Made by a program: the position numbers and the translations under genes
Assembly: GCF_001517975.1 (NCBI RefSeq)
Contig: NZ_KQ950180.1
Coordinates: forward strand, 797,498 to 861,497
Length of the DNA: 64,000 bases
Direction: 5' to 3'
From: Thermobifida cellulosilytica TB100
Lineage (GTDB): Bacteria; Actinomycetota; Actinomycetes; Streptosporangiales; Streptosporangiaceae
The notes under the pieces: model-generated
Told to the model about the DNA's origin: nothing
What the model saw: the letters and a program-made list of their open reading frames with translations, nothing else
The model's database searches: none
Part shown: one piece after another, positions 26,807 through 36,242 of the stretch
How the letters are laid out: each line of letters opens with the position of its first letter
Numbering within the stretch: position 1 is the stretch's first letter

Positions 26807-28309
26807 CTACCTGATGTTGCCGCCGGAGAGTCTCTGTCCCTGCTCCCGAGGTTGCCGCTGGTAGTCGTGGTAGATGACCGACAGGTCGTAACTCTGCCTG
26901 GACCTGAGCTTCCTCTCCGGCGTACTTCTGTCCACCCGCGAGAGATAGAGGTTCCTGGTAAGGCTCTTGATACCCTCCTCCAGCGCGTTCATCTCTCGGT
27001 CTTCGGTCAGACTATCCTCCTCACCTCGGAGGATGGACCAGAAATGGGCCTTGGGATCGCCGTTTTGCTCCGACCGGCGCCAGGCCACCACGGGAACCCC
27101 GCAGACGACGGCGGCATACACCTGCCGACGCCATTCAACACCGGGAAGGGCATAGGCCACAAAAGCTGCGATCGCCTCGTTTCCGAGGTAGTCGGCGGCG
27201 TTCTCCCAGCCCTCTTCGAGCACCTCGGACGAGGTCCCCACGCGCCCCTTCCCCTCGTGCAGCTTCTGCCAGCGGCGCAGGCATGCCCGCTGTGCCCTGG
27301 GATCGCGCGCGAATTCCTCGCTCCTGATGAGGATCTCGTACTGGGATCCCAGACGCGCAGCCGGGGCGTCCCGGTGCAGTTCAAGCGGCCAATTCTGGAC
27401 AACAAACCTGAAAAGTAGCGAAAACGGAAATATGAATTCCAGTCGAATCTTTTCATGATTGTCGGCCTGCTGCCCCTCCGCCCAGGCGATCAGCTCGGAC
27501 ACCCTACGGGGCAGCTCCTCCGCGGCGACCTCGGTCAGCGCCTCGGCCTCGCAGACGTCCATCCAGTCGTCCTCGGGGTGCGTGGCCAGCCGGTAGGCGA
27601 CCCACAGCCGCTCCACGTTGCCCAGGTCGTGCTCCACCTTGATGATGAGCCGCGGCGGGAGGCGCAGCGGAGGCTGCGGTTCCCGCACCTCGGTACGCCG
27701 CACCTCTGCTCCGGGGCGCCCCTGCCCGGCGTTCCACTCCGCCACCGCCCGGGCGACCTCCTCCCGGCCCGGCTGAGCGGCGAGGAGGTGCAGGAAGCGC
27801 TCCCCCGGCTCCTCCCCCGAGGGTCCCAACGGGATCTCCTTGAGGTCGAGGAACGCCTCCCAGGCAGTACGGGGGACCGGCACCGCGATCTCCTCCGCCG
27901 ACCGGTGCTCCACAGCGCGGTAGGCCCGGTCCACCCGCTCGTCGTAGGCCACGTCGCGCAGCGTCCTGCGCAGCCGCTCCCACACGGCCCGGTCGCGGCC
28001 CGAGCCGCTGATCTCCCACTCCTCCTGCACCAGCAGACCCTCGGCCAGTTCGCACACCTGCACCACGGGCCTGGAGTCGTCCTCCAGCCAGCGCAGCCAG
28101 CGCAGCATCACCCCTAGCTGCCCCTGCCTGCAGCACTGGACCACCAGGGAGAACGCGAACCCCTGCGGGTCCATCGACAGCCTGAGCTTGGACCGCACCC
28201 CCGTCGGGAGGCAGTGCCAGAACTGCTGGCGGGCGTCCTCCTCGTACACGGACCTGACCTGCCACAGCGCGCTCGCCACCTCGTGGTGGGCGCGCCTGAC
28301 CTCCGTCAC
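26807..28309 (-). CDS. VMAP-C-like protein
   Basis: A 500-residue protein without a catalytic motif that I recognise. Its layout fits the VMAP component that links protease and ATPase in vWA-MoxR conflict systems. The N-terminal 150 residues are helical. A middle segment has PPRLIIKVEHDLGNVERLWVAY and EDDWMDVCEAEALTE. The C-terminal part has RLEFIFPFSLLFRFVVQNWPLE and GVPVVAWRR. The GTG start overlaps the upstream protease stop (GTGA), which indicates coupling. The part beyond about 27000-27450 is less GC-rich than its neighbours. Assignment rests mainly on context and general similarity. Confidence 0.7.
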   Translation of the reverse strand: MTEVRRAHHEVASALWQVRSVYEEDARQQFWHCLPTGVRSKLRLSMDPQGFAFSLVVQCCRQGQLGVMLRWLRWLEDDSRPVVQVCELAEGLLVQEEWEISGSGRDRAVWERLRRTLRDVAYDERVDRAYRAVEHRSAEEIAVPVPRTAWEAFLDLKEIPLGPSGEEPGERFLHLLAAQPGREEVARAVAEWNAGQGRPGAEVRRTEVREPQPPLRLPPRLIIKVEHDLGNVERLWVAYRLATHPEDDWMDVCEAEALTEVAAEELPRRVSELIAWAEGQQADNHEKIRLEFIFPFSLLFRFVVQNWPLELHRDAPAARLGSQYEILIRSEEFARDPRAQRACLRRWQKLHEGKGRVGTSSEVLEEGWENAADYLGNEAIAAFVAYALPGVEWRRQVYAAVVCGVPVVAWRRSEQNGDPKAHFWSILRGEEDSLTEDREMNALEEGIKSLTRNLYLSRVDRSTPERKLRSRQSYDLSVIYHDYQRQPREQGQRLSGGNIR

Positions 28310-29292
28310 TGCCCCCACAGCACTTCGGCCGCCTCCCGTACCCGGCGCATCGACAGGCTCCCCTCCTCGAGCATCTCGAGCGTCTCGAGCACCTCCTCCA
28401 ACTGCTCGTGTTCCAGGGCGAGCCTGACCAGGCGGTCCGCGAAGAACAGCGGCGCCGCATCGGCGTTCAGCCGCTGCCGGAACCTGGCGTCGAGCAGGGC
28501 GTAGAACGCTCTGCGGGCCTCCGGCTCGGCGATCGTGGACGTGCGGGCCACCGCGACGGCGAGGCCGTGCACCGCGCGAGGACCGGGATCGCGCCGGGAG
28601 GCACCGGACAGCGGCGCGGCCCGGCGGCCCCACACGTCGGGGACGGCCTCGACCGGGATCATCCAGCCGCGCACCCCCAGGCCCGTCTCGTCGTGGTCGG
28701 CCTGGCAGACAATGCCGATCAGCGCCCCGCCGGGGTCCTCCCGGACGCCGCTGCCGCTGAAGCCGTAGACCACCCGCGCCGCGGTCGAGGACTCGAGGTC
28801 GAGCTGCACGTACTCGAAGCGGCGCCCACCGCCCTGGCCGACCAGGGTCGCCCGGGACCACACCCCGGCCGGAGCCGTGTCGTGGGTGAAGCCCACCATG
28901 CTCACCGTCCGCCCCGGCCGGTCGACCGGACCGCAGCGCCGGATCTCGGGCGGCGCGGCCGGTGCGGGGCGGTCGAGCAGGAGGACTGCCGCGTCCCACG
29001 GGGAGCGGTCGACGAACCAGCCGTCCTCGAGGACGGTCGCCCGGGCCTGCCAGGTGCCGCCGCCGCGGGGCGCGTCCAGCAGGACCGGCTCCTCCGGGCG
29101 CGGCGTGGCCTCCTCCTCCCAGAAGACCCCCAGGGCGGCACAGACCACGTGGGCGCATGTGAGCAGATGCCGCGGAGAGACGAGGACTCCGGCTCCCGCT
29201 GTGCCCCCGTCGAGCGTGCGGACTCGCAACTGCCAGTCGGGGGAAAGCGGCGCAGCGGGGGGAACAGGCACAGCGGCTGTCTCTTTCTGCAC
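28306..29292 (-). CDS. Trypsin-like serine protease with helical adaptor domain
   Basis: A 328-residue cytoplasmic protease; no signal peptide is visible. The trypsin/HtrA-like fold has the full triad: His48 (LTCAHVV), Asp100 (SPWDAAVLLL) and Ser179 in GFSGSG. After a linker, residues 250-328 form a helical domain (RRAFYALLDARFRQRLN...VREAAEVLWGQ) that looks like an effector-associated adaptor. It is the first gene of the VMAP unit and is coupled to the next by a GTGA overlap. It probably cleaves a host or toxin substrate once the NTPase arm senses a trigger. The GTG start has no strong ribosome site. Confidence 0.85.
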   Translation of the reverse strand: MQKETAAVPVPPAAPLSPDWQLRVRTLDGGTAGAGVLVSPRHLLTCAHVVCAALGVFWEEEATPRPEEPVLLDAPRGGGTWQARATVLEDGWFVDRSPWDAAVLLLDRPAPAAPPEIRRCGPVDRPGRTVSMVGFTHDTAPAGVWSRATLVGQGGGRRFEYVQLDLESSTAARVVYGFSGSGVREDPGGALIGIVCQADHDETGLGVRGWMIPVEAVPDVWGRRAAPLSGASRRDPGPRAVHGLAVAVARTSTIAEPEARRAFYALLDARFRQRLNADAAPLFFADRLVRLALEHEQLEEVLETLEMLEEGSLSMRRVREAAEVLWGQ

Positions 29293-31599: not shown

Positions 31600-31715
31600 G
31601 GAAGGCAAGTCTAGGGGAGCGCGGACCGCCCGGTTCGCGGCATGGACAGCGGGACCGGTGCGGGACGCGCCTATCCTGGCGGGGTACCCCTCTTTCTCCG
31701 TACTCGGAGCGTTTC

Positions 31716-32795
31716 TTGTACGTCGCAGAGTTGACGGTCTCCGGAATCCGCGGATTCCGCGGCGCGCGCGGCGCCGATCTGGGCCTCACCCGGCCCGACG
31801 GCACCCACGCGGGCTGGACCGTGCTCGCGGGGCCCAACGGCGCGGGCAAGAGCACGCTGCTGCGCGCGCTGGCGCTGGCGCTGGTGGGGCCGTCGGTGAG
31901 CCGCAACCTGATGACGGACTTCCGGGGCTGGCTGTCCCGGGGGGAGACGGACGGCCGGGTGCGCGTGCGGGTCCACCCGGACCCGAAGTGGGACCGCACG
32001 CCCCGGGGGCGCGACGTGCTGCGGGAGCCGTTCGAGGCGGAGCTGTACTGGAGCGACTTCGGCGGGGGCCGGCCGCAGTTCCTCATCGAGCCGGACCGCA
32101 CGGTGCTGTTGGAGAACGGCCCGTGGACGGAGGAGCCCAAGGGCTGGTTCGTGGTCGGCTACGGTCCGTTCCGCCGCCTGGTCGGGGCGCGGTCCACGGG
32201 GCGGCCGGTGCCGGTGCCGGGCGCGGTGTCCCGGCTGGCCAACCTGTTCGGCGAGGACACGTCCCTCTCCGAGGCGCTGCGCTGGCTGACCGGTGTCCAC
32301 CTGGGCTGGCGGGAGGGCTCCGCCAGGCTGCCGCGGTTCGTGCTGTCGCTGCTCGACGACGGGCTGCTGCCCGGCGGGTTCCGGGTGGTGCGGCTGGACG
32401 ACGACGGCCTGTGGGTGGCCCACGGCGGCGAGGAGTTCCTGCTCGCGGAGCTGAGCGACGGTCACCGGATGGTCGTGGCGCTGGTGGTGGACCTGGTGCG
32501 GCACGCCTTCGAGGTGTTCGGCACCGCGGCGCTCGGCGAGCACGCGGGCGCCCCGGCCGTGGTCTGCCCCGGCGTGGTCCTGATCGACGAGGTCGAGGCG
32601 CACCTGCACGCGGGCTGGCAGCAGACCATCGGCGACTGGCTGACGCGGCACTTCCCCCGCATCCAGTTCGTGGTGACCACGCACAGCCCCTACATCTGCC
32701 GGAGCGCCGACCCCGGGGGCCTGGTCCTCCTGCCCGCCGCGGGCCGGGAGGAGGCGCCCTACGTGGTCTCCGAGTCCCAGGAGCTCGCCTCCTGA
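31716..32795 (+). CDS. AAA ATPase, paralog of the Septu-like ATPase
   Basis: A 359-residue SMC/RecF-like ATPase. It starts MYVAELTVSGIRGFRG. Walker A is GPNGAGKST, the ABC-like signature is ELSDGHR, Walker B is VVLIDEVEAHLH, and the H-loop is TTHSPYICRSADPGG. It is clearly paralogous to the ATPase at 33089 along its whole length but stops about 80 residues earlier, at VVSESQELAS. It has no HNH partner of its own. The TTG start and 24 bases around it are almost identical to those of the paralog (GGAGCG then TTG). Its role is unknown: a decoy, a regulator or a second subunit. Confidence 0.85.
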   Translation: MYVAELTVSGIRGFRGARGADLGLTRPDGTHAGWTVLAGPNGAGKSTLLRALALALVGPSVSRNLMTDFRGWLSRGETDGRVRVRVHPDPKWDRTPRGRDVLREPFEAELYWSDFGGGRPQFLIEPDRTVLLENGPWTEEPKGWFVVGYGPFRRLVGARSTGRPVPVPGAVSRLANLFGEDTSLSEALRWLTGVHLGWREGSARLPRFVLSLLDDGLLPGGFRVVRLDDDGLWVAHGGEEFLLAELSDGHRMVVALVVDLVRHAFEVFGTAALGEHAGAPAVVCPGVVLIDEVEAHLHAGWQQTIGDWLTRHFPRIQFVVTTHSPYICRSADPGGLVLLPAAGREEAPYVVSESQELAS

Positions 32796-32900
32796 CCCGG
32801 CGATCATGGCCCCAGGGCCATGACGGGCGGCCTCTATGGTCCCAGCACCATGATCGTCGGGAGCGCGTCGGGCTTCTGCCCTACCGGCAGCCGCTACGGA

Positions 32901-32914
32901 CTGCAGTACTGCAG
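32901..32914. promoter_or_regulatory. Perfect palindrome adjoining a -10 box
   Basis: CTGCAGTACTGCAG is a perfect 14-base palindrome. It ends one base before the candidate -10 hexamer TAGAGT (32915-32920). That position would let a bound dimer block RNA polymerase. It lies between the two ATPase genes, so it probably controls the second ATPase and HNH gene or the short transcript described next. Confidence 0.55.
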
Positions 32915-33000
32915 TAGAGTGTGCCTCGTAAGCCCCGGCGTAGCCTCCGCTCGTCAAGCTCCGGGGCACAGCCTTTCCGGCCTGCTCCACAGCGCACCTG
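32915..33000 (+). ncRNA. Promoter-plus-hairpin element, copy 1
   Basis: TAGAGT (32915-32920) acts as a candidate -10; transcription would start about seven bases on, at GTA (32928). The RNA would fold a 7-base-pair stem, GCCCCGG at 32932-32938 with CCGGGGC at 32961-32967. The same layout, with 29 of 39 bases identical up to GCTCG and then GCTCC/GGGGCACAGC, occurs at 37507. In this copy the triplet after the spacer is GTA, not a start codon, which favours an RNA or leader over a small leaderless gene. It could be the 5' leader of the ATPase/HNH operon or a separate RNA. Confidence 0.4.
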
Positions 33001-33088
33001 TCTTCTGTTGAGGCGAGCATGCAGCAGGATGACCCGGTAAGGATCTCGGGCTTGCACTTGTCTTGGCCGTCCACGCTCGGAGCGTTCC

Positions 33089-34423
33089 TTGTACGTCGCG
33101 AAACTGGCGATCTCTGACATCCGCGGGTTCCATGGCACACGCGGTGTCGACCTGCGATTCACTCGCCCCGGTGGTGAACACGCAGGATGGACCGTGCTCG
33201 CCGGACGCAACGGCTCCGGAAAGACCACGCTGCTACGGTCCCTGGCTCTGGCACTGGTCGGCCACCTGACCGGACGCCGCCTAGTCCCCGACTTCCAGGG
33301 GTGGCTGTCCTCCGGCAGTTCGCGGGGGCAGATCAACGCCTTGGTCCATCCCGACCCGGAATGGGACCTCCTGAACAACGGCTCTCCCCTCCGAGAGCCG
33401 TTCAACACTGTGCTGACGTGGGAGAACCTCGGCGACGATCGTCCCGGGAACAGCGCCCGGTCAACGCTCATCGTCGACGTTCCGTCAGACCTTCCCCTTC
33501 ACCGCGGTCCTTGGTCGGATAATCCTCGGGGCTGGTTCGTCGCAGGATACGGGCCTTTCCGACGCTTGGGCCGAGGGTCGTCAGAGGCTCAGCGGTTGAT
33601 GCTCGCCACGGGGCCGGTCTCCAGGCTCGCCACTCTCTTCAACGAGGACGCATCCCTGACAGAAAGTGTCCAGTGGCTGATCAGCCTGCATCTGAGGCGT
33701 CTGGAGGAGCGGGAGGGAGCCGCAGAACTCCTGGAGTTCGTATTCTCCCTGCTCAACGACGGCTTGCTGCCCGACGGGTTCCGGGTGCTGCGGGTGGACA
33801 GCGAAGGTCTGTGGGTGGTCCGTGACGGCGGGGAGATCCCGTTGCGGGAGATGAGCGACGGCTACCGCACGGTCACCGCCCTGGTACTGGATCTGGTTCG
33901 CCACGCCTTCGACGCTTTCGGCACTGAGGCTCTCGGCGAGCGGGACTCCGTTCCGACCGTGGTCTGTCCCGGAGTGGTACTGATCGACGAGATCGACGCT
34001 CACCTGCACGTGAGCTGGCAGAAGGTGATCGGTGACTGGCTGAAGCGGCACTTCCCCCGCATCCAGTTCATCGTGACCTCGCACAGCCCCTACATCTGCC
34101 AAAGCGCCGATCCGGGAGGCTTGATCAGGTTGCCCGGCGTGGACGAGGACGAGGCTCCCCGTGTGGTCTCCGAGGAGCTGTACGAGCGGGTGGTGTACGG
34201 CAGCGGTGACGATGCACTGCTTACCGAGCTGTTCGGAATCGACTCGCCCTACTCGGAACGTGCCGAGGAGAAACGTCGGCGACTGGCACGTCTGGAGTCT
34301 GCCGTACTGCGCGGAACGGCCACTCCCGAAGAGGTGAGTGAATACGAGGACCTGCAAAGGACTCTGACCAGTTCGTTCACCGCACGGGTGGACGAGGTTG
34401 CGGGACGGATACACCGGGCTTGA
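33089..34423 (+). CDS. Septu-like AAA ATPase (PtuA-like)
   Basis: A 444-residue SMC/RecN-like ATPase. Walker A is GRNGSGKT at 39-46, the signature is EMSDGYRTV, Walker B is VVLIDEIDAHLH, and the switch is TSHSPYICQSADPGG. The last 80 residues are a charged helical tail (RAEEKRRRLARLESAV) absent from the paralog. The HNH gene starts one base after its stop. ATPase plus HNH is the gene pair of the Septu anti-phage system (PtuA/PtuB). TTG start with GGAGCG upstream, conserved with the paralog. No reverse transcriptase is near, so it is not a retron-linked Septu. Confidence 0.82.
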   Translation: MYVAKLAISDIRGFHGTRGVDLRFTRPGGEHAGWTVLAGRNGSGKTTLLRSLALALVGHLTGRRLVPDFQGWLSSGSSRGQINALVHPDPEWDLLNNGSPLREPFNTVLTWENLGDDRPGNSARSTLIVDVPSDLPLHRGPWSDNPRGWFVAGYGPFRRLGRGSSEAQRLMLATGPVSRLATLFNEDASLTESVQWLISLHLRRLEEREGAAELLEFVFSLLNDGLLPDGFRVLRVDSEGLWVVRDGGEIPLREMSDGYRTVTALVLDLVRHAFDAFGTEALGERDSVPTVVCPGVVLIDEIDAHLHVSWQKVIGDWLKRHFPRIQFIVTSHSPYICQSADPGGLIRLPGVDEDEAPRVVSEELYERVVYGSGDDALLTELFGIDSPYSERAEEKRRRLARLESAVLRGTATPEEVSEYEDLQRTLTSSFTARVDEVAGRIHRA

Positions 34424-34424
34424 C

Positions 34425-35147
34425 GTGATTCGTATTCGCCGGGCGAAGCTGCCCGAACCGTTACGTCACCAGTTGGCCAGGAAAACTGAAGAACTCCGCG
34501 CCTCTGAAGCTGGCCCCGGGGAGGCGCGAAACGAGTGGAAGAGGGCGGAGAACGTCCGCCGGTCGGTACGAGAACTGCTCGCCACGATGGCCACCGGTAT
34601 CAAGCGGTGCATGTACTGCGGCGACAACCAGGGTGATGCCATCGACCACTTCGAGCCGATCGCTCAAGCTCCACTGCGCACCTTCGACTGGCACAACCAT
34701 TTCCTCGCCTGTTCCCACTGCAACAGCCACCAGAAGCGTGATCTCTTCCCCCGTGCTGCCAACGGGACCCCGCTGCTGATCGATCCAACCGCCGAAGACC
34801 CCTACGAACACTTGAGGCTGCTGCTGAGCATCGGGGAGTACGAGGCGCTGTCTGAACAGGGCGAGGCAACCATCAAGGTCTTCGGACTCAACCGCACCGT
34901 CCTCACCCGGGGCCGCGCCGTCGCGTTCATAACAATGCGGTCGTTGCTACGTGACCGACAGCGCCTCGTCCAGGAAGGCAACCCTACAGAGGCTGCCGAG
35001 ATCACCGAGTCGCTACGTTTCCAGCCCTTCGCAGACGTGCTCTCGGCGATGCTGCGCTACCGCCATCTTCCCGGCGCGGCGGTTGTCCTGGGCGGTCCCG
35101 ATGTGCTCGAAGCACTGGACGATCCAGAACTGGACTTCTGGTCGTAG
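34425..35147 (+). CDS. HNH endonuclease (PtuB-like)
   Basis: A 240-residue HNH nuclease. The zinc site and catalytic core are CMYCG, AIDHFEPIAQ and NHFLACSHCNSHQKRD, arranged as in PtuB-type HNH proteins. A C-terminal region of about 100 helical residues follows. The GTG start follows the ATPase stop by one base, giving VIRIRRAKLPEPL. A TTG at 34398 would overlap the ATPase end. It is expected to cut nucleic acid when the ATPase is triggered by phage infection. Confidence 0.84.
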   Translation: MIRIRRAKLPEPLRHQLARKTEELRASEAGPGEARNEWKRAENVRRSVRELLATMATGIKRCMYCGDNQGDAIDHFEPIAQAPLRTFDWHNHFLACSHCNSHQKRDLFPRAANGTPLLIDPTAEDPYEHLRLLLSIGEYEALSEQGEATIKVFGLNRTVLTRGRAVAFITMRSLLRDRQRLVQEGNPTEAAEITESLRFQPFADVLSAMLRYRHLPGAAVVLGGPDVLEALDDPELDFWS

Positions 35148-35179: not shown

Positions 35180-35371
35180 TCAGAGCTCGCCGTGCTTGGC
35201 AGCGGCCAGGAGCGCCGCCCACTCGGCAGCGGGAAACTCCAGGTGGCCCAGGTGCCGGTGCTGCGTGTCACGGACAGCGGAAGAACGCGGAGCAGTGGCA
35301 ACCTCGACACAGTTGTTGCTGCTGGGGTTGCTGTAACTGGACTTCTTCCACCTGGCGACAGTCAGGTCCAC
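35180..35371 (-). CDS. DUF397-domain protein
   Basis: A 63-residue protein that is essentially one DUF397 domain: ARWKKSSYSNPSSNNCVEVA, AVRDTQHR and EFPAAEWAALLAAAKHGE. The GTG has GGAGG six bases upstream, which decides against the longer frame. It follows the XRE gene by 25 bases and is its usual small partner. The pair behaves like BldB/WhiJ-type regulatory modules. Confidence 0.85.
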   Translation of the reverse strand: MDLTVARWKKSSYSNPSSNNCVEVATAPRSSAVRDTQHRHLGHLEFPAAEWAALLAAAKHGEL

Positions 35372-35396
35372 GTCTCCCCTCCACCAGTCCAAGTCG

Positions 35397-36242
35397 TCAG
35401 ACGAGCAACCGTTCCAGGAAGTCACGCGAGTCCTCGACAGACATGGCGCTTCCCTGAGTACGACCGAAAATCAGCCTATACCTGGCAATCTCCTCATCAG
35501 TGTCCAAGTAGTACCCATCTTTGTGGGTTTCCAGATAAACGACACTGCCAGCAGCATCAGTGCCGTCAAAGCCGAGGATGGTGAAGGGGATTCCGGCTGC
35601 TGCGTGCGCTCCTGCGGCGAACGGAAGTACCTGGATGTCGACCCGAGGCCGTTCAGAGAGTTCGATCAAGTGTCTGACCTGGGACTTCATCGTCTCGCCC
35701 CCGCCAATCTGACGGCGTACCGCGGCTTCGTCGATGACCGCCATGACCATCGGAGGATTATCGCGGTCGAGCACTGCCCTCTGCCGTTCGGCTCGTATCT
35801 CCAGACGACGTCGGATCTCTTCCTCTCCATGGATGTCTACCGAGGTGCGCATCAGGGCAGCGGTGTAGTCGCGAGTCTGGAGCAACCCGGGTACAAGGGC
35901 GATGTTGTACTCCTGGATCAGCGTGGCTTCTGTCTCAAGACCCAGGAAGGCCCCTGGAAGCACATCCTTGTACTGCGTCCACCAGGGCTTTTCCGTGCGG
36001 GAATCTCGGGCGATCTGAATGAGCTCCTGCGCCACGGCCTCGTCAGCCTTGTAGATCTGGCACAGCGCCATGATGTCTCCCGCACGGAGCCTCTGGAAAT
36101 CTCCGGCTTCGAGACGTTGGAGTTTGGCCCGGCTCCATCCCAGTGCCTTCCACACCTCGTCCTGGGAGAGTCCGGCCTCACGCCGGAGCCGCTTCAACTG
36201 AATCACCAAGTGCCGTCTCCGGACTGGCATTCTCGCAGCCAT
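35397..36242 (-). CDS. XRE-family regulator with DUF5753 domain
   Basis: A 281-residue regulator. The N-terminal helix-turn-helix is LKRLRREAGLSQDEVWKALGWSRAKLQRLEAGD. The C-terminal DUF5753 ligand-like domain covers residues about 95-275 (FLGLETEATLIQEYNIALVPGLLQT...VVYLETHKDGYYLDTDEEI). It is paired with the DUF397 gene downstream. The upstream 36243-36419 region is less GC-rich than its surroundings and carries two GCCGCCTC copies, likely for autoregulation. Confidence 0.9.
   Translation of the reverse strand: MAARMPVRRRHLVIQLKRLRREAGLSQDEVWKALGWSRAKLQRLEAGDFQRLRAGDIMALCQIYKADEAVAQELIQIARDSRTEKPWWTQYKDVLPGAFLGLETEATLIQEYNIALVPGLLQTRDYTAALMRTSVDIHGEEEIRRRLEIRAERQRAVLDRDNPPMVMAVIDEAAVRRQIGGGETMKSQVRHLIELSERPRVDIQVLPFAAGAHAAAGIPFTILGFDGTDAAGSVVYLETHKDGYYLDTDEEIARYRLIFGRTQGSAMSVEDSRDFLERLLV

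What the first reader, a model, noticed from the sequence alone, without database searches (positions are those of the whole stretch)
31716..35147. Septu-like ATPase-HNH pair with a second, truncated ATPase paralog upstream
The ATPase at 33089 and HNH gene at 34425 fit the Septu PtuA/PtuB pair. The gene at 31716 encodes a close paralog that stops about 80 residues earlier and lacks an HNH partner, although its Walker motifs are intact. A duplicated ATPase could widen phage recognition or regulate the complex.
Basis: partly seen in the sequence, partly recalled or inferred. Interest (0 to 1): 0.65.

Follow-up and report, generated by a model that had tools for sequence, protein, structure and literature searches.

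The report
Septu defence pair plus tail-less ATPase
A standard bacterial anti-phage system (an ATPase with its nuclease) sits beside a second copy of the ATPase that lacks the part thought to hold the nuclease, and related species keep this cut-down copy even after the rest of the system has decayed.

Summary
ATPase2 (33089-34423) and the HNH gene (34425-35147) are a canonical Septu PtuA/PtuB pair. ATPase1 (31716-32795) is a 59% identical PtuA paralog without the last ~80 residues and without its own PtuB. The window lies in Thermobifida; all four species held carry the locus beside metG and tatD. ATPase1 is intact and ends at the same place in three; in the fourth its front is joined to an ATPase2 tail. 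The ATPase2-HNH pair is broken in the three species other than the window's. ATPase1 evolves under strong purifying selection (omega 0.05-0.07). The cut fits structure: entries titled as PtuA without PtuB align only to our residue 361-366 (3 of 4 entries; the fourth 392), those with PtuB to 440-444 (8 of 8). Among 40 near relatives, tail and PtuB occur together (35) or are both absent (5). Best reading: a PtuA core without the nuclease dock; inferred and untested, it joins PtuA assemblies and keeps PtuB out. Within our searches it is limited to one genus: a new variant of a known kind.

The parts
31716..32795 (+). ATPase1: PtuA paralog of 359 aa ending where the PtuB-dependent C-terminal tail of PtuA begins; TTG start
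   Evidence: (PtuA profile 402.6 bits, positions 1-367 of 446)
32796..33088 (+). 293-bp spacer between the two ATPase genes; no remnant of a PtuA tail or PtuB found
33089..34423 (+). ATPase2: full-length PtuA, 444 aa, TTG start
   Evidence: (600.4 bits, 1-445 of 446)
34172..34420 (+). C-terminal tail of ATPase2 (residues 362-444, five predicted helices), absent from ATPase1
34425..35147 (+). PtuB, HNH nuclease, 240 aa from the GTG start supported by homologs (mechanical ORF 34398-35147)
   Evidence: PtuB 339.5 bits; HNH above Pfam cut-off
31609..31715 (+). Upstream region of ATPase1, shared with the divergent tatD; CCTATCCTG and CTCGGAGCG(T/C)TTC before the start codon are kept in 4 of 4 species

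Best explanation
ATPase2 plus HNH is an ordinary Septu PtuAB system. ATPase1 is a PtuA core from which the C-terminal, PtuB-dependent tail has been lost; it goes back to the stem of Thermobifida and has been kept as a working protein since. Shown here: paralogy, a truncation shared by three species, purifying selection on the truncated ORFs, survival where the PtuAB pair is broken, and coincidence of the cut with the border of the PtuB-dependent tail. Inferred: ATPase1 can pair with PtuA but carries no nuclease, so mixed assemblies hold less PtuB. It would act as an attenuator of the resident Septu in the window's species and, where Septu is dead, as an antidote against incoming Septu.
For: Septu. 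Shared truncation and survival: three ATPase1 ORFs of 357, 359 and 360 aa end in (E/G)LAS-stop; ATPase2 and PtuB are frameshifted in G002, ATPase2 is a stop-bearing remnant and PtuB undetected in T. fusca, PtuB is in pieces in G001. T. fusca is the most divergent of the four by metG, TatD and CaiB nucleotide identity, which suggests that the truncation predates the split. Selection: pairwise ML omega 0.049-0.068 for ATPase1, 0.042-0.046 for tatD, 0.040-0.083 for CaiB; omega=1 rejected (2dlnL 130-235 for ATPase1); codon-position differences 47/28/119. Tail; the PtuA constructs with and without PtuB have the same sequence. The ATPase1 model matches PtuA structures best (Z 27.1, 3.2 A over 315 residues, 9nnb_F). 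PMC11555353 (passages): retron-Eco7 PtuA alone is not toxic, PtuAB is.
Against: No interaction was tested. Retention without a resident Septu fits any PtuB-independent role as well. The signature Ser is Gly in three of four species, which could weaken ATP-driven pairing. That the tail contacts PtuB is inferred from order and co-occurrence, not measured. Tail and PtuB can be lost together in one deletion (seen in Streptomyces), so co-absence is not independent proof of coupling. In G002 the pair may be newly broken: ATPase2 is otherwise open and 92% identical, so only T. fusca speaks for long retention without Septu. Only four species are held.
Confidence: 0.38

Rival explanations
1. ATPase1 is a domesticated stand-alone Rad50/SMC-type ATPase with its own role (for example DNA-end sensing or another partner), no longer tied to Septu.
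For: Under purifying selection and kept where the Septu pair is broken; long stem branch 0.52 then short tips, as after a change of role; ATPase1-specific changes in 4 of 4 species, among others R40P in Walker A, Y259H, D303E, V308A, S309G, Q338R; codon usage of a resident gene in the window (GC3 0.978 against 0.769 for ATPase2).
Against: No conserved new partner gene was seen: the shared neighbours are metG, tatD, CaiB and a trypsin-like gene. I recall no such function for a PtuA-like ATPase.
Confidence: 0.32
2. ATPase1 is a relic: one deletion took the ptuA 3' end and ptuB, and a GC-rich frame stays open by inertia.
For: Such a deletion is visible in Streptomyces sp. ATexAB-D23 when compared with its PtuB-bearing relative A0958. 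Random GC-biased substitutions leave the frame open in 7-12% of simulations, so an open frame alone is weak evidence.
Against: Omega 0.05-0.07, close to tatD and CaiB; third-position excess, p 3e-16 for window against T. fusca; same stop in three species.
Confidence: 0.15
3. ATPase1 is an alternative sensor subunit that widens phage recognition by the resident PtuAB.
For: Both ATPases are intact in the window; the window's ATPase1 alone in the genus keeps the signature Ser.
Against: In G002 and T. fusca ATPase1 is kept without a working PtuAB; it lacks the tail seen ordered with PtuB.
Confidence: 0.08

Closest known systems
Septu (PtuA/PtuB), PADLOC PtuA1 PDLC00269 / PtuB1 PDLC00317
   Same: ATPase2 and HNH match over nearly full length and are adjacent
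   Different: The locus carries an extra tail-less PtuA upstream
Retron Ec78/Ec83 PtuAB effectors (9nnb, 9e90)
   Same: Same fold for ATPase2 (Z 29.0 and 28.1) and ATPase1 (Z 27.1 and 26.2)
   Different: About 20% identity; retron PtuA/PtuB models of NCBIfam score far below cut-off; the six neighbouring window proteins scanned in Pfam show no reverse transcriptase
Type IV methyl-directed restriction pair mREase_IV (PADLOC PDLC03660/03661)
   Same: Second-best PADLOC match for all three proteins
   Different: Scores well below Septu: 390 against 600 bits for ATPase2, 224 against 339 for the HNH protein
Orphan truncated PtuA of Actinomadura craniellae (L066)
   Same: 358 aa, match to ATPase2 ends at the same residue (362), no PtuB detected in its genome
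   Different: Groups with a PtuB-bearing PtuA of another genome (99/94), not with Thermobifida ATPase1: independent loss

Membership tests
Septu (ATPase2 + HNH) | PtuA ATPase over full profile length | tested here: met
   600.4 bits, profile 1-445/446
Septu (ATPase2 + HNH) | Adjacent PtuB with HNH domain | tested here: met
   PtuB 339.5 bits; Pfam HNH 23.8 against cut-off 21.4
Septu (ATPase2 + HNH) | PtuA fold of solved Septu/retron complexes | tested here: met
   8eea_D Z 28.1 (3.9 A, 377 residues), 9nnb_D Z 29.0 (4.5 A, 385 residues)
Septu (ATPase2 + HNH) | Phage protection needing Walker and HNH residues | not testable with these tools
   shown for an E. coli Septu in PMC13096335 (passages)
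PtuA (ATPase1 as a Septu ATPase subunit) | ABC ATPase core with Walker A, Walker B, H-switch | tested here: met
PtuA (ATPase1 as a Septu ATPase subunit) | C-terminal tail of about 80 residues | tested here: not met
   match ends at profile 367/446
PtuA (ATPase1 as a Septu ATPase subunit) | Own PtuB directly downstream | tested here: not met
Retron I-A | Curated retron PtuA and PtuB score | tested here: not met
   ATPase2 101.7 against cut-off 500; HNH 36.6 against 150

The most novel reading that the evidence does not exclude
Tail-less PtuA is a dedicated Septu antidote: it joins PtuA assemblies, leaves no dock for the HNH nuclease, protects the host from its own or incoming Septu, and is therefore kept like a solitary antitoxin after the parent system is lost.
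Probability: 0.25. Interest if true: 0.72.

Novelty: new variant of a known kind. Interest (0 to 1): 0.45.

Why it matters
PtuA needs PtuB for toxicity in retron-Eco7 (PMC11555353, passages). A natural PtuA that lacks just the part ordered with PtuB, and is kept by selection, is a ready test of whether defence ATPases have a nuclease-free job or serve as self-encoded inhibitors. It also warns that one of two 'PtuA' calls in a locus may not be a working Septu subunit.

Tried and rejected
Relic reading tested by codon models and largely rejected. A recent tandem duplication in the window's species rejected: the ATPase1/ATPase2 split is older than the species compared. A wider stand-alone family was not found: the class-level search had matches in 9 of 394 genomes at E 1e-20 and no further copy ending where ATPase1 ends. 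The search of 397 relatives gave 159 genomes with a match at E 0.001, of which by my count 35 are strong (E under 1e-40) and the rest weak; outside Thermobifida only A. craniellae (G107) ends at the same point. Truncated PtuA in phages: the viral-contig scan confirmed no relative among 21 pattern matches; phage records gave 7 weak hits of 22-40% identity. Plasmids gave 72 records, the top-ranked at 48.9%; not followed up. Papers: the listings of searches showed none on a tail-less or orphan PtuA; the Septu structure paper (Li 2024) is not held, so tail-PtuB contacts were not read.

Limits of the tail/PtuB count: 40 of the 48 PtuAs were kept. Eight were dropped: seven under 49% identity (L050, L062, L063, L073, L074, L075, L077) and L072 with a broken frame. 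Of these, L062, L063, L073, L075 and L077 have a PtuB match without this tail motif, so the motif is clade-specific and the rule does not hold beyond the clade in this form; L072 has PtuB and its tail was not scored; L050 and L074 show no PtuB (L074 has only 225 bp downstream). The motif was loosened, where three PtuB-bearing rows (L060, L076, L078) missed the first form. PtuB is not intact in all 35: it is in pieces in G001, G002, L004 and L049 and partly matched or stop-bearing in L032, L038 and L039. The five without both stand for four independent losses on the tree. The window's own two genes are not among the 40. Fisher p 1.5e-6 ignores relatedness.

Limits of the structure count: it uses the best chain of each entry and the last aligned residue. 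I sorted entries by title; nine further retron entries whose titles do not name PtuB (9kjz, 9kjx, 9vhe, 9kk2, 9kjy, 9e8z, 9vhl, 9u9y, 9l7p) reach 443-444 and were left out of the 8.

IQ-TREE codon runs gave likelihoods but no readable omega, and the attempt to read it failed; replaced by a pairwise ML script. YN00 failed for several pairs.

Full report
Observation. ATPase1 (31716-32795), ATPase2 (33089-34423) and the HNH gene are present as described. The two ATPases are 59% identical over the shared part. PADLOC gives PtuA for both: ATPase2 covers the whole profile, ATPase1 stops at 367 of 446; the HNH protein is PtuB. The mREase_IV pair scores second. Retron models are far below their cut-offs.

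Where it lies. The window is G000:C1:797498-861497. Three other species of the genus are held. In all four the locus lies beside metG and tatD-CaiB; in T. fusca metG with the ATPase2 remnant and tatD with ATPase1 are on two contigs, so the join there is inferred from gene order.

State of the locus in the four species. Window: ATPase1, ATPase2 and PtuB intact. G002: ATPase1 intact (357 aa, 87%); ATPase2 frameshifted near codon 23 but otherwise open and 92% identical; PtuB frameshifted and cut short. T. fusca: ATPase1 intact (360 aa, 81%); ATPase2 a remnant with stops; PtuB not found. G001: one ORF of 436 aa whose first ~335 residues follow ATPase1 and whose end follows ATPase2 (16-19 of 20 identical residues in the blocks from column 341 to 440), with PtuB in pieces. 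I read this as recombination between the tandem copies. The three short ORFs end at the same place with a shared end, (E/G)LAS-stop. T. fusca is the most divergent of the four by metG, TatD and CaiB nucleotide identity (no rooted species tree was made). The simplest history is one truncation before the genus split.

Selection. Pairwise ML omega for the three truncated ORFs is 0.049-0.068; tatD 0.042-0.046, CaiB 0.040-0.083, a fast trypsin-like neighbour 0.10-0.19; omega=1 is rejected in all pairs. YN00 gives 0.045-0.063 for ATPase1 where it ran; NG86 gives 0.22-0.27 for ATPase1 against 0.14-0.20 for tatD and 0.15-0.27 for CaiB (pairs without G001), so the level depends on the method, the constraint does not. 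ATPase2 between window and G002 gives 0.24 (YN00) or 0.31 (NG86). Differences in ATPase1 fall on third positions (47/28/119 for window against T. fusca). An open frame alone would survive 7-12% of the time, so the codon evidence carries the claim. It covers the whole time since the species split and cannot say how much of it passed after the loss of PtuAB.

Origin. In a tree of 46 PtuA rows the Thermobifida ATPase1 and ATPase2 clades are sisters (100/98); ATPase1 has a long stem (0.52) and short tips (0.04-0.15). In the window GC3 is 0.978 for ATPase1 and 0.75-0.77 for ATPase2 and PtuB; ATPase1 has 0.944 in G002 and 0.875 in T. fusca. This may mean different histories and I draw no firm conclusion. 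A route to truncation is visible in Streptomyces sp. ATexAB-D23: against its relative A0958 one gap of about 900 bp removes the ptuA 3' end and ptuB.

What the missing part does. The AlphaFold2 model of ATPase2 (mean pLDDT 84.8, but 55-58 over the last 14 residues) has five helices between residues 362 and 443 that ATPase1 lacks; ATPase1 alone still folds with fair confidence (82.2). Aligned to solved structures (best chain of each entry), entries titled as PtuA without PtuB reach model residue 362 (9e91), 366 (8sux), 361 (9n6c) and 392 (8ee4); entries titled with PtuB or the HNH nuclease reach 440-444 (9nnb, 9nnh, 9nnk, 9e90, 8eea, 9o4a, 9n69, 9n6b: 8 of 8). The PtuB-free entries share their PtuA sequence with PtuB-bearing ones (9e91 with 9e90; 8sux and 8ee4 with 8eea; 9n6c with 9n69 and 9n6b), so the missing part is unseen, not cut from the construct. 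Of the four 8eea chains listed, two have 372-375 ordered residues and two 445-456. ATPase1's homology ends at ATPase2 residue 362. So the cut falls at the border of the PtuB-dependent part; contact itself was not measured. Among 40 near PtuAs, 35 have tail and PtuB and 5 neither (limits in Tried and rejected).

Active site. Walker A, Walker B and H-switch are kept in all four ATPase1s; the signature Ser (42 of 42 others) is Gly in G001, G002 and T. fusca and Ser in the window. The one species with an intact Septu keeps the Ser; with four species this is only suggestive.

Mechanism. Shown: a PtuA core without the tail, kept by selection, with or without an intact Septu pair beside it. Inferred: it can still pair with PtuA and lowers nuclease occupancy. 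PtuA alone is harmless and PtuAB toxic in retron-Eco7 (PMC11555353, passages); Walker and HNH residues are needed in an E. coli Septu (PMC13096335, passages). The chief rival is a PtuB-independent role; the data do not separate the two.

Verdict. A known system with a selected, tail-less ATPase paralog, found in one genus in these searches: new variant of a known kind, interest 0.45.

Noticed in passing
window 35180-36242 (-): HTH_31-DUF5753 regulator with a DUF397 gene directly downstream of PtuB, low GC3 (0.69-0.78); T. fusca keeps the regulator (89%) with three DUF397 matches next to its dead ATPase2. A similar pair (30% identity for the regulator) sits beside the orphan PtuA of A. craniellae.
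   Followed up: partly
window 26810-29292 (-): Two adjacent genes, a trypsin-like peptidase with a weak EAD2 match and an EAD2-VMAP-M0-VMAP-C protein, resembling a protease-effector conflict system (recalled); the protease differs much between species (67-74% identity).
   Followed up: partly
L051 8022-9326 (-) (G001): Chimeric PtuA: ATPase1 front and ATPase2 tail, next to a fragmented PtuB.
   Followed up: yes
L065 against L076: Streptomyces ATexAB-D23: one gap of about 900 bp removes the ptuA 3' end and ptuB, a direct view of how orphan truncated PtuAs can arise.
   Followed up: yes
L071 30-1331: Actinobacterial MAG with a PtuA that loses its last part and no PtuB match; a SAM-methyltransferase-like ORF follows at once (the label is by eye).
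   Followed up: partly
L053 11389-13688 (T. fusca): A flavoprotein (PF02441) and a long ORF without Pfam match lie after ATPase1, up to the contig end.
   Followed up: no
L050 1501-2886: PtuA-like ATPase with a different tail and no PtuB detected, grouping with Lysobacteraceae PtuAs.
   Followed up: no
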